A DNA stretch of 64,000 nt from Vulcanimicrobiota bacterium. Its GTDB lineage: Bacteria; Vulcanimicrobiota; Xenobia; Xenobiales; JADMJV01. Positions 27,254-30,352 of the stretch are shown in pieces. Made by a program: the position numbers and the translations under genes. The stretch lies in assembly GCA_019637395.1 (NCBI GenBank), contig JAHBVR010000003.1, positions 372,001 to 436,000 on the forward strand. Reading direction: 5' to 3'. Position 1 is the stretch's first letter; every line of letters begins with the position of its first letter. The notes beneath the pieces are model-generated. The model saw only the letters and a list, made by a program, of their open reading frames with translations, had not been told where the DNA came from and searched no databases.

Positions 27254-28468
27254 ATGCAGCCGCAGGCCATTCATGATCACTTCCTGGACGAATTCCAGGA
27301 CATGGACATCAGCAACTTCGAGAGCTACGTGATCGCCGCTTTTCGCAAGGGCTCCAGCGACGTGCATTTCGAGCCGCTGCCCGCGGAAATCCGTATCCGC
27401 TGCCGAATCGAAGGCGATCTTTACGAGATGGCCCGCCTGCGCCACTCGCCCGGACCCAAGAAGCCTCACCCCATCACGGTTCAAATCAAGGCGCGCAGCG
27501 GCTTGCAATTGCAGGCTCGGACTCCCGAGGATGGGCGTTTCGAGATGGTGGTGGATGAGCAGCCCTTGAACCTGCGCGTTTCCTCGATCCCCCAGGTATT
27601 CGGCGAGAAGCTGGTGGTGCGCATCTTCAACGTCAATCGCATTACCGATCTACGCACCCTGGGCTTCCGCGACGTCAACCTGAAGCGCCTGCGCCAGATC
27701 GTGGTGCAGAAGGCCGGCCTGATCCTGATTTCCGGTCCCACCGGCTCGGGCAAAACCACTACCCTGTATTCGATTCTCAACTACCTGAATGACGCCCGGC
27801 GCAACGTGGTCACCATCGAAGACCCGGTCGAGTACTTCTTCCACGGCATGAATCAGATTCAAGTCGATGGCACCGCCATGACCTACGACATCGCCCTGCG
27901 CTCGATTCTGCGCCAGGACCCGGACGTGATCATGATCGGCGAGATCCGGGACAAATACACGGCCGAGATGGCTTTCCACGCTTCTATGACCGGCCACCTG
28001 GTGCTCTCTTCCGTTCATTCCAACGACACCGTGGGCGCCGTCCTGCGCCTGCTCGACCTGGGCGTGCCCCCGGTCATCCTGGCCCAGGGCCTCAACGGCG
28101 TCGTCTCCCAGCGGCTGGTGTCCAAATTATGCTCCGAGTGCGCCGTGGCCGATAGCCATCCCCCCCTGGACGCCATCCGCACCTACGCACCCATCGGCTG
28201 CAGTAAGTGCAGCGGGGGCTTCCGCGAGCGCGTGGGGGTTCAGGAAATCTTGATCCTGACCGACACCCTGCGCAAAATGATCATCTCCAACTTCGACGAG
28301 GAAGAATTCTCCATGCTGGCTCTTTCCGAAGGCATGGAGACCTTAAAGGAAGATGCCATCTTCAAATCCATCGAAGGCAAAGTGAGCTACCGCGACGCGC
28401 TGGGCATCACCAGCGAGAGCATCGCGCGAATTTTAGCCGACATCAATCGGATTCTGAAAGATATCTAA
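27254..28468 (+). CDS. GspE/PilB-type secretion ATPase, short form
   Basis: A second type II/type IV pilus ATPase, 404 residues, lacking the long N-terminal domains. It has SDVHFEP (about residue 40), Walker A GPTGSGKTTT (161-170), EDPVEY, Walker B RQDPDVIMIGEIRD, the His box SSVHSNDT and a tetra-Cys zinc element (CSEC, CSKC). It is an assembly- rather than PilT-type motor by its Cys element and C-terminus. No other pilus genes are adjacent; a GspF-type gene at the right window edge is one possible partner. The 3' end overlaps srkA by 26 bases. Confidence 0.88.
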   Translation: MQPQAIHDHFLDEFQDMDISNFESYVIAAFRKGSSDVHFEPLPAEIRIRCRIEGDLYEMARLRHSPGPKKPHPITVQIKARSGLQLQARTPEDGRFEMVVDEQPLNLRVSSIPQVFGEKLVVRIFNVNRITDLRTLGFRDVNLKRLRQIVVQKAGLILISGPTGSGKTTTLYSILNYLNDARRNVVTIEDPVEYFFHGMNQIQVDGTAMTYDIALRSILRQDPDVIMIGEIRDKYTAEMAFHASMTGHLVLSSVHSNDTVGAVLRLLDLGVPPVILAQGLNGVVSQRLVSKLCSECAVADSHPPLDAIRTYAPIGCSKCSGGFRERVGVQEILILTDTLRKMIISNFDEEEFSMLALSEGMETLKEDAIFKSIEGKVSYRDALGITSESIARILADINRILKDI

Positions 28469-29414
28469 GTTGCTGCTCTAATTCGTCGAGCTCCCGGCGC
28501 CAGAAAGCGTAGCTGTCCACGTCCGAAAAGCGGCGCTGAAAGGCCGGGTCGTTGCGGCGCCTGGCCAGCCAGGCGGCATAGTGGACGAACTTCAAGGCGC
28601 GCAACGGCTCGATCAGCTCCAGTTGCTTGCGATCGAAAGGATGGACGGCCTGGTAGCCTTCCAGCATCAACTCGCGCAGTTCCACCGCCTCCGCATCGCG
28701 GCCGGAGACCAGCAGCCACAAGTCCTGCACGGCCGGCCCGGTGCCGCAATCATCCAGATCGACGATCTTGAGGCCCAGCGAACTGCTGAGCAGGTTGCCC
28801 TTGTGCAGGTCACCATGGATGCGCAGGCTGGGGGCCTGGACAAAGCCTTTTTCCACCCGCTGCAGCAGTTGCCGGACGGTTTTCTGGTAGCGCGGCCACA
28901 GGGTCTCGGGCACGACCCGTTCTTTTTCCAAAGTCTGCAAGGCCTGGCCGGCCCAATACTGCGGCCCCAGCACGGGCCGATGACGAAAACGGCCGGCCTG
29001 ACCGAGGCGGTGCAGGCGACCGATCAGATGGCCCACTTGATAGGCCAGCGCCGGGTCCACTTCATCGCAGGGCCGACCCAGGTGGTAGGGAAAGACGCAG
29101 AACCAGATACCCTCGATACTGTCTAAAGTGGACCCGCCCCGCAGCGGCACCGGAGCCACCACCGGCAGATCTTCGTCCAGCAACTCCTGCAGAAAGTCGT
29201 GCTCCTCCAGCAGGGCCGCTCTGGTCCAGCGTCCGGGACGATAGAACTTACCCACCCAGCGCTCTCCCTCCACGTCCTGAACCCGGACCACCCGGTTTTC
29301 CAGGCTGTTGAGAAAGGTGATGGTCGGCTCCAGCTCCAGGCCCGCCGATTCAAAAGCGCGGTGGATACAACCGGGAGTAAGATCGTAGAAAGTGTCGGTC
29401 TGGCTTTGGGGCAT
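28443..29414 (-). CDS. srkA: SrkA/YihE-like stress-response kinase
   Basis: A 323-residue aminoglycoside-phosphotransferase-fold kinase, very close in length to E. coli SrkA (328), a Ser/Thr kinase that protects against stress-induced death. Visible motifs: RVQDVEGERWVGKFYRPGRW (N-lobe Lys), the catalytic loop IHGDLHKGNLL and the metal-binding IVDLDDCGTGP. The ATG at 29414 is chosen because homology starts at PQSQTDTFYDLTPG; the longer frame upstream passes through a repeat array and is not coding. Its promoter must lie in or near that array. Confidence 0.88.
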   Translation of the reverse strand: MPQSQTDTFYDLTPGCIHRAFESAGLELEPTITFLNSLENRVVRVQDVEGERWVGKFYRPGRWTRAALLEEHDFLQELLDEDLPVVAPVPLRGGSTLDSIEGIWFCVFPYHLGRPCDEVDPALAYQVGHLIGRLHRLGQAGRFRHRPVLGPQYWAGQALQTLEKERVVPETLWPRYQKTVRQLLQRVEKGFVQAPSLRIHGDLHKGNLLSSSLGLKIVDLDDCGTGPAVQDLWLLVSGRDAEAVELRELMLEGYQAVHPFDRKQLELIEPLRALKFVHYAAWLARRRNDPAFQRRFSDVDSYAFWRRELDELEQQLRYLSESD

Positions 29415-29450
29415 GGGAAAGCCCTTACCGATCGGTGGCGGAGTTCCTCG

Positions 29451-29744
29451 GGAGCCGAGTTGCCACAAATTTGGCAAGAGTTGCCAAAAAACCGGCAAGT
29501 CCGGTTTCCCGGGGGCCAAGTTGCCACAAATTTGGCAAGAGTTGCCAAAAAACCGGCAAGTCCGGTCCGCCAGGGGCCAAGTTACCACAAATTTGGCAAG
29601 AGTTGCCAAAGACCGGCAAATCCGGCACGCCGGGGCCGAGTTGCCGCAAATTTGGCAAGAGTTGCCAAAAACCGGCAAATCCGGCACGCCGGGGGCCAAG
29701 TTGCCACAAATTTGGCAAGAGTTGCCTGAAAGCCGGCAAGCCGG
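29451..29744. repeat. Five ~60-bp tandem units, each with two palindromes
   Basis: Five direct repeats with spacings of 61, 61, 59 and 60 bases. Each unit holds TTTGGCAA-GAG-TTGCCAAA (perfect 8-base arms in units 1-4, e.g. 29531-29549; decayed in unit 5), overlapped upstream by TTGCCA-CAAATT-TGGCAA, and a second palindrome ACCGG-CAAGT-CCGGT (7-base arms in unit 1). The array fills the divergent interval between srkA (minus) and the small ORF/mce operon (plus). The spacing is not a multiple of three throughout, so it is unlikely to be coding. Confidence 0.95.
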
Positions 29745-29786
29745 ACAGGAGGAGGAGCAGGGTCGGCATAAAAGGCTCCCGGTACT

Positions 29787-29942
29787 ATGGAACATCATGT
29801 TGCGGGCTACGGCCCGGTTGCTAACTCCTGGATCGTTTTCAAATGGGTCATGATCTGGCTTATGGCCTGTGGCCTTCCGATTGTCGCCTCACTGGCTCTA
29901 CCCCAGTGGGTCAAGACGGATAGTCACGCCGAACATCATTGA
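29787..29942 (+). CDS. Small single-pass membrane protein coupled to mce
   Basis: A 51-codon frame missed by length-limited gene finding. It starts with ATG at 29787 and encodes MEHHVAGYGPVANS, then a Trp/Met-rich hydrophobic helix (WIVFKWVMIWLMACGLPIVA) and a short polar tail ending SHAEHH, so both ends are His-rich. The stop TGA (29940-29942) overlaps the TTG start of mce. The ribosome site is weak (AAAAGG, 11 bases upstream). The coupling argues that it is translated with the methylmalonyl-CoA genes; function unknown. Confidence 0.55.
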   Translation: MEHHVAGYGPVANSWIVFKWVMIWLMACGLPIVASLALPQWVKTDSHAEHH

Positions 29943-30352
29943 TTCGTCAACTCGATCACGTCGCCATAGCCGTCCCCAACCTGGATGAGGCGGTACCGTT
30001 TTATCGCGATGTGCTGGGATTGCCCTTTCTCTATTTCGAAGAGGTCACCGACCAGAAGGTCCGGGTGGCCTGTTTCGATCTAGGGGGAATGCGGCTGGAG
30101 TTGCTCCAGCCCAGCAGCGAGGACTCCCCCATTTCCAAGTTCCTGGCCCAGCGCGGCCCCGGGCTGCACCACCTGGCCTTTCGCAGCGACGACGTCGCCT
30201 CCGAGTTGGAGCGCGTACGCGGTCACGGGGTGCGCTTAATCGACGAATCCCCGCGCTCGGGCGCCGGGGGAATGCAGATCGCTTTCCTGCATCCCAAATC
30301 CACCCAGGGAGTTTTGATGGAGTTGACCCAACCCGGTGAGCATGTGGAGTGA
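29939..30352 (+). CDS. mce: Methylmalonyl-CoA epimerase
   Basis: Converts (S)- to (R)-methylmalonyl-CoA. A 137-residue glyoxalase-fold protein with metal ligands in QLDHVAIAVPNL (His), RLELLQPS (Glu region), GLHHLAF (His) and GVLMELTQP (Glu), all in the family order. The neighbouring mutA, mutB and meaB genes support the call over other VOC proteins. It starts with TTG, overlapping the upstream small ORF, and overlaps mutA by 17 bases. Confidence 0.93.
   Translation: MIRQLDHVAIAVPNLDEAVPFYRDVLGLPFLYFEEVTDQKVRVACFDLGGMRLELLQPSSEDSPISKFLAQRGPGLHHLAFRSDDVASELERVRGHGVRLIDESPRSGAGGMQIAFLHPKSTQGVLMELTQPGEHVE

What the first reader, a model, noticed from the sequence alone, without database searches (positions are those of the whole stretch)
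29451..29744. Five-unit array of paired palindromes between srkA and the mce operon
Each ~60-base unit carries TTTGGCAA-GAG-TTGCCAAA and a second CCGG-type palindrome, in the only interval from which both srkA and the methylmalonyl-CoA operon can be transcribed. The conservation of arms with decaying flanks suggests protein binding or a REP/BIME-like element. An operator array for a dimeric regulator is one reading; a mobile palindromic repeat family is the other.
Basis: partly seen in the sequence, partly recalled or inferred. Interest (0 to 1): 0.7.

Follow-up and report, generated by a model that had tools for sequence, protein, structure and literature searches.

The report
Dispersed REP-like palindrome tandem arrays
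The five repeats between srkA and the methylmalonyl-CoA genes are a recent copy of a dispersed, palindromic ~61-base repeat that sits in tandem arrays at many intergenic sites (mostly between genes that run toward each other) in a few related Eremiobacterota species; they are not a dedicated control switch for these two genes.

Summary
The array is real: five units spaced 61, 61, 59 and 60 bp, with the palindrome TTTGGCAA-GAG-TTGCCAAA perfect in four (0 expected by chance). It is not a dedicated operator. About 49 units of this family (A) lie at about 10 loci in the window's genome and about 45 at 8 loci in one congener; none were found in three other congeners. At srkA/mce that same congener and two others lack the array (gap 85-111 bp against 374), so it is a species-specific insertion. 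A sister family B (GGTAA-NNN-TTACC) shares the layout TTGCC-N7/8-GGYAA-N3-TTRCC-N7/9-GGCAAG and a 59-62 bp period; an exact layout search hits 3 of 149 genomes of the phylum, all in this genus. Across 37 loci of all families, 21 lie between convergent genes (expected ~17%, P ~1e-7), often within 40 bp of both stop codons, as reported for REPs. Units are homogenised within arrays (80% identity against 65% between). No GTAG/CGTC tag adjoins the stems and no RAYT is linked. Best reading: a REP/BIME-like non-autonomous repeat, a new variant of a known kind. How it spreads, and any function (3'-end hairpin, gyrase or other protein site), are inferred, not shown.

The parts
29451..29744 (+). Family A tandem array, five ~61-bp units
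29454..29514 (+). Unit 1 (61 bp)
29515..29575 (+). Unit 2 (61 bp)
29576..29634 (+). Unit 3 (59 bp)
29635..29694 (+). Unit 4 (60 bp)
29695..29744 (+). Unit 5, decaying at its right end (TTGCCTGA, then unique sequence)
29470..29488 (.). Central palindrome TTTGGCAA-GAG-TTGCCAAA, perfect (again at 29531-29549, 29592-29610, 29651-29669)
29711..29729 (.). Central palindrome of unit 5, 2 mismatches
28443..29414 (-). srkA-like kinase (NF008738 346 bits; APH family PF01636), starts 37 bp left of the array
29787..29942 (+). 51-aa small ORF MEHHVAGYGPV..., conserved in three congeners, first ORF right of the array
29939..30352 (+). methylmalonyl-CoA epimerase (TIGR03081)

Best explanation
A non-autonomous, dispersed palindromic repeat of REP/BIME-like behaviour. 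The unit is ~61 bp and carries four alternating inverted half-sites (two to three possible hairpins). It is seeded at new intergenic sites, then expands and is homogenised locally by duplication of one to three units. It is tolerated, or favoured, mainly between convergent genes; here it entered a divergent promoter interval after the species split. SHOWN: dispersal, empty orthologous sites, layout shared with a second family, convergent bias, within-array homogenisation. INFERRED: that seeding is by a transposition-like or template-switch process, that expansion is by slippage or unequal recombination, and that any function acts through the dyad (a hairpin at mRNA 3' ends, or a binding site for gyrase or another dimeric protein). 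At srkA/mce the likeliest effect is incidental: it moves the two divergent starts from ~95 to 374 bp apart.
For: Copies: 35 hits at <=2 mismatches in the genome, 0 in the reversed-pattern control; about 49 units at about 10 loci here and about 45 at 8 loci in G002, with only weak hits elsewhere. Empty sites: srkA/mce in G002, G001 and G004; the C12 site (L075:12361-12791) empty in G002 and G001; the G002 C53 array absent in G000, G003 and G004. Two sites filled in both G000 and G002 (L076/L081, L077/L082). Sister family B with the same layout and period; A and B consensus cores align better than 2000 of 2000 shuffles, and spacing modes are 61 (A) and 60 (B). Layout pattern: 49, 74 and 8 hits in G000, G001 and G002, 0 in 146 other genomes of the phylum, 0 in the reversed control. 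Position: 21 of 37 loci convergent against 15-18% background, P 1e-8 to 9e-8. Homogenisation: within-array identity 0.80, between 0.65, 0 of 1000 permutations; adjacent units tend to be most alike, and some arrays show 2-3-unit higher-order periods. Published REPs in REP-rich genomes also lie mainly between unidirectional and convergent ORFs, conv-REPs mostly within 20 bp of both 3' ends (PMC3733652). Flanking genes are unrelated to each other.
Against: No linked transposase: PF01797 finds only a split, stop-containing gene in G000 and none in G001-G003; no A or B core near any hit. No GTAG/CGTC next to the stem. Array insertion boundaries are blurred and no target-site duplication was recognised, so transposition is not shown. 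Within family A no compensatory base change was seen, so hairpin formation is not supported there; conservation is of sequence. Family A alone splits evenly between convergent (7) and divergent (7) sites; the convergent bias comes largely from family B (12 of 17).
Confidence: 0.78

Rival explanations
1. Dedicated operator array: a dimeric regulator binds each TTTGGCAA-GAG-TTGCCAAA and controls srkA and the methylmalonyl-CoA operon together.
For: Perfect dyads in the divergent promoter interval; strict conservation of half-sites without covariation, as expected for protein sites.
Against: Same sites at many unrelated genes, mostly at gene 3' ends for the wider set; array absent from this interval in three congeners that keep both genes.
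Confidence: 0.05
2. The dyads are genome-wide binding sites of a nucleoid, topoisomerase (gyrase) or partition protein, kept by selection at many places, with arrays acting as high-occupancy sites at gene 3' ends. (A possible function of the repeat; not exclusive of the best explanation.)
For: Convergent bias, rigid ~61-bp period in families of different sequence, near-invariant half-sites. Gyrase cleaves E. coli BIME-2 in vivo (PMC6379681).
Against: Sites differ between close species and half-sites differ between families A, B and C; no binding data.
Confidence: 0.3
3. RNA-level 3'-end elements: the hairpins stabilise or terminate the transcripts of both convergent genes. (A possible function of the repeat; not exclusive of the best explanation.)
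For: Arrays often abut both stop codons; the window array folds better than shuffles as RNA (z -5.7); two terminator-like sites on the minus strand (0.9 +/- 0.9 expected).
Against: No covariation in family A; some arrays lie beyond ordinary terminators (L084, L085); the single-strand DNA fold gives a similar z (-5.9), as any inverted repeat would.
Confidence: 0.25
4. Chance tandem slippage at a single locus.
For: Local unit duplication clearly occurs.
Against: The same unit occurs at about 18 family A loci in two species.
Confidence: 0.01

Closest known systems
REP / BIME elements (GTAG and CGTC superfamilies; E. coli BIME-2)
   Same: Intergenic palindromes in alternating orientation, tandem clusters, dispersed, species-variable, convergent sites next to 3' ends (PMC3733652).
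   Different: No GTAG or CGTC tag adjoining the stem; no linked RAYT; mostly long regular arrays of period 59-62; sequence confined to one genus as far as searched.
REPINs of Pseudomonas (REP doublets mobilised with RAYTs)
   Same: Two hairpin-forming units in inverted arrangement as the basic entity; ordered clusters are tandem repeats including flanks (PMC3116915).
   Different: REPINs in P. fluorescens SBW25 are mostly single, with a largest ordered cluster of four, and clusters adjoin RAYT genes; here arrays reach 14 units and no RAYT is found.
CGTC REPs lacking a dedicated transposase
   Same: 8-9-bp stems, dispersed, no dedicated transposase known (PMC3733652).
   Different: 3-nt loop here against 4-5; no CGTC tag next to the stem (a GCGTCAAG string in some A units is a variant of the outer half-site); clusters are rare in CGTC REPs and the rule here.

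Membership tests
REP/BIME | Short palindromic extragenic repeat, many dispersed copies | tested here: met
REP/BIME | Regularly spaced palindromes in alternating orientation (BIME) | tested here: met
   Four alternating half-sites per unit, tandem units
REP/BIME | GTAG or CGTC tag at one end of the stem | tested here: not met
   Bases flanking the central stem are ACAAA/GGAAA and AAACC/AAAGC in family A
REP/BIME | Associated RAYT (Y1 tyrosine transposase, PF01797) | tested here: not met
   Only a split gene in G000, none in G001-G003; no A or B core near any hit
REP/BIME | Bias to 3' ends / convergent intervals | tested here: met
   21 of 37 loci, background 15-18%
REP/BIME | Binding by gyrase, IHF or Pol I | not testable with these tools
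   Needs binding or cleavage mapping
Dedicated operator array | Sites confined to, and conserved at, the regulated promoter | tested here: not met
   Dispersed; absent at orthologous interval in three congeners
Known structured RNA | Match to an Rfam family | tested here: not met
   No match in window, L262 or L082

The most novel reading that the evidence does not exclude
A genus-specific superfamily of dispersed palindromic arrays whose ~61-bp period and four-half-site layout persist while the half-site sequences change (A: GGCAA/TTGCC; B: GGTAA/TTACC; perhaps C: CGGGGAA/TTCCCCG). It would be spread and homogenised by a RAYT-independent process and kept preferentially between convergent genes, implying a protein or replication process that measures about six helical turns.
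Probability: 0.25. Interest if true: 0.65.

Novelty: new variant of a known kind. Interest (0 to 1): 0.45.

Why it matters
It gives a clean case of REP/BIME-like elements without a detectable RAYT or REP tag, in a phylum (Eremiobacterota) for which I found no paper mentioning tandem repeats in the library searched. The filled and empty sites among five congeners make spread, expansion and homogenisation of such repeats directly traceable. The conserved period across families of different sequence is a testable hint of a physical constraint. It also warns against reading perfect dyads in a promoter as an operator.

Tried and rejected
Dedicated operator: rejected by dispersal and empty orthologous sites. 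RAYT/IS200 link: PF01797 search, nothing linked. Known RNA: no Rfam match. RNA structure by covariation: none in family A; family B pair counts are uninformative because unit orientation was chosen to fit a reference. Sigma-70 promoters in 29380-29960: none found. Sigma-54 site: the GG-GC spacing in the unit is 8 rather than 10 (read from sequence; consensus from my own knowledge). Viral origin: the one viral-contig hit (L099) is a lone match in an apparent coding sequence, taken as chance.

Full report
WHAT IS THERE. The window array is real and far beyond chance: period 61, 4.9 copies, spacing 61, 61, 59, 60, the 19-mer perfect four times and with 2 mismatches once, none expected. Aligning 44 units from all loci shows a conserved core TTGCC-N8-GGCAA-N3-TTGCC-N8-GGCAA with ten invariant columns, and a more variable G+C-rich remainder (information 1.55 bits per column over positions 6-33 against 0.75 over the last 16).

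IT IS DISPERSED. With up to 2 mismatches the 19-mer occurs 35 times in the window's genome and its reversed control 0 times. BLAST and a profile of the unit find six arrays (5-11 units) plus at least four single units in that genome, and eight arrays in one congener, G002. G001, G003, G004, G005 and G006 have no convincing family A match. The genes beside the arrays have nothing in common: Omp85, TPR protein and M14 peptidase, mechanosensitive channel, acyl-CoA oxidase, ankyrin repeats, glutamine cyclotransferase, SLH protein.

EMPTY SITES. The srkA/mce interval exists in G002, G001 and G004 with both genes and the small ORF, but without the array: 95, 85 and 111 bp against 374 bp here. So the array entered (or, less parsimoniously, was lost three times) after the species separated. 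At the C12 site (L075:12361-12791) G002 and G001 are empty; at the C53 site the array is in G002 and not in G000, G003 or G004. Two sites carry arrays in both G000 and G002 (L076/L081, L077/L082). At the second of these, G003 has an array of another palindrome (family C). Between-array similarity does not always follow orthology: L076 is closest to L072 of its own genome and L082 to L084 of its own genome, consistent with exchange or re-seeding within a genome; this last step is inference.

SISTER FAMILIES. Family B (GGTAA-NNN-TTACC centre, TTGCC and GGCAAG outer half-sites) forms arrays of 59-62 bp period in G000, G001 and G002, up to 13-15 units. Consensus cores of A and B align with a score reached by 0 of 2000 shuffles. 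The combined layout pattern has 49, 74 and 8 matches in G000, G001 and G002, none in 146 other genomes of the phylum, none in the reversed control. That pattern is an exact one, so diverged relatives elsewhere would be missed. Family C (CGGGGAA/TTCCCCG; G003, G001; periods 60-61, one of 72) has alternating half-sites too, but homology to A and B is not shown. In a sample of 464 kb of G000 and about 1.2 Mb of relatives, most strong tandem repeats have periods divisible by 3, as coding repeats would; periods near 60 recur among the others.

WHERE IT SITS. With array sequence masked and ORFs called by a simple rule, 21 of 37 loci are convergent, 8 divergent, 8 co-directional; background from 1.2 Mb is 15-18% convergent; binomial P between 1e-8 and 9e-8. 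L082 was scored co-directional, but the protein search places a plus-strand gene next to it, so the count is if anything low. Caveats: heuristic ORFs, two orthologous sites counted twice, related species, and loci chosen because a search found them; family A alone is 7 convergent, 7 divergent, 4 co-directional. The window array is one of the divergent minority.

HOW IT CHANGES. Identity is 0.80 within arrays and 0.65 between (0 of 1000 label permutations). Some arrays show 121-123 and 184 bp higher-order periods, and similarity tends to fall with distance along three of four long arrays. This is the signature of local duplication and homogenisation.

MECHANISM. Best supported: a non-autonomous REP/BIME-like repeat, seeded at new intergenic sites and then amplified locally. 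The seeding step is inferred; no transposase or target duplication was found. A function is possible but not shown: published data link REP/BIME to 3' ends (PMC3733652) and BIME-2 to gyrase cleavage (PMC6379681). The absence of covariation in family A favours a DNA-sequence constraint over an RNA one, weakly. The protein-site and RNA-hairpin rivals are possible functions of the repeat, so their probabilities overlap with that of the best explanation.

VERDICT. Observation confirmed; operator reading not supported; mobile-palindrome reading supported in behaviour, with two defining marks of classical REPs (tag, RAYT) tested and not met. It works like a REP/BIME element; membership in that family is not claimed. 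Filed as a new variant of a known kind.

Noticed in passing
window 29787-29942 (+): 51-aa conserved small ORF MEHHVAGYGPVANSWIVFKWVMIWLMACGLPIVASLALPQWVKTDSHAEHH in front of methylmalonyl-CoA epimerase, present in G001, G002 and G004; no Pfam or NCBIfam match; hydrophobic centre, likely a small membrane protein.
   Followed up: partly
L262:3755-4633 (G000 C17), L257, L258-L261, L271: Family B arrays, at least eight in the window's genome, up to 13-15 units, mostly between convergent genes.
   Followed up: partly
L128:545-837 (G001 C62): A different 58-bp tandem array (5.1 copies) in the interval orthologous to the G000 C6 family A array.
   Followed up: no
L079:8111-8487 (G002 C186): A family B-like array of 3 units directly beside a family A array of 3 units in one interval.
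   Followed up: no
L164:1293-1389 (G000) and L224:18523-18630 (G004): A 46-bp repeat with GGGGGGCTAACGCGCCTCCCCC, ~2 copies, shared by two congeners; another palindromic repeat type.
   Followed up: no
G000 C17:499-854 (L089/L092): A Y1 transposase gene split over two frames near a contig end; no repeat core nearby.
   Followed up: partly
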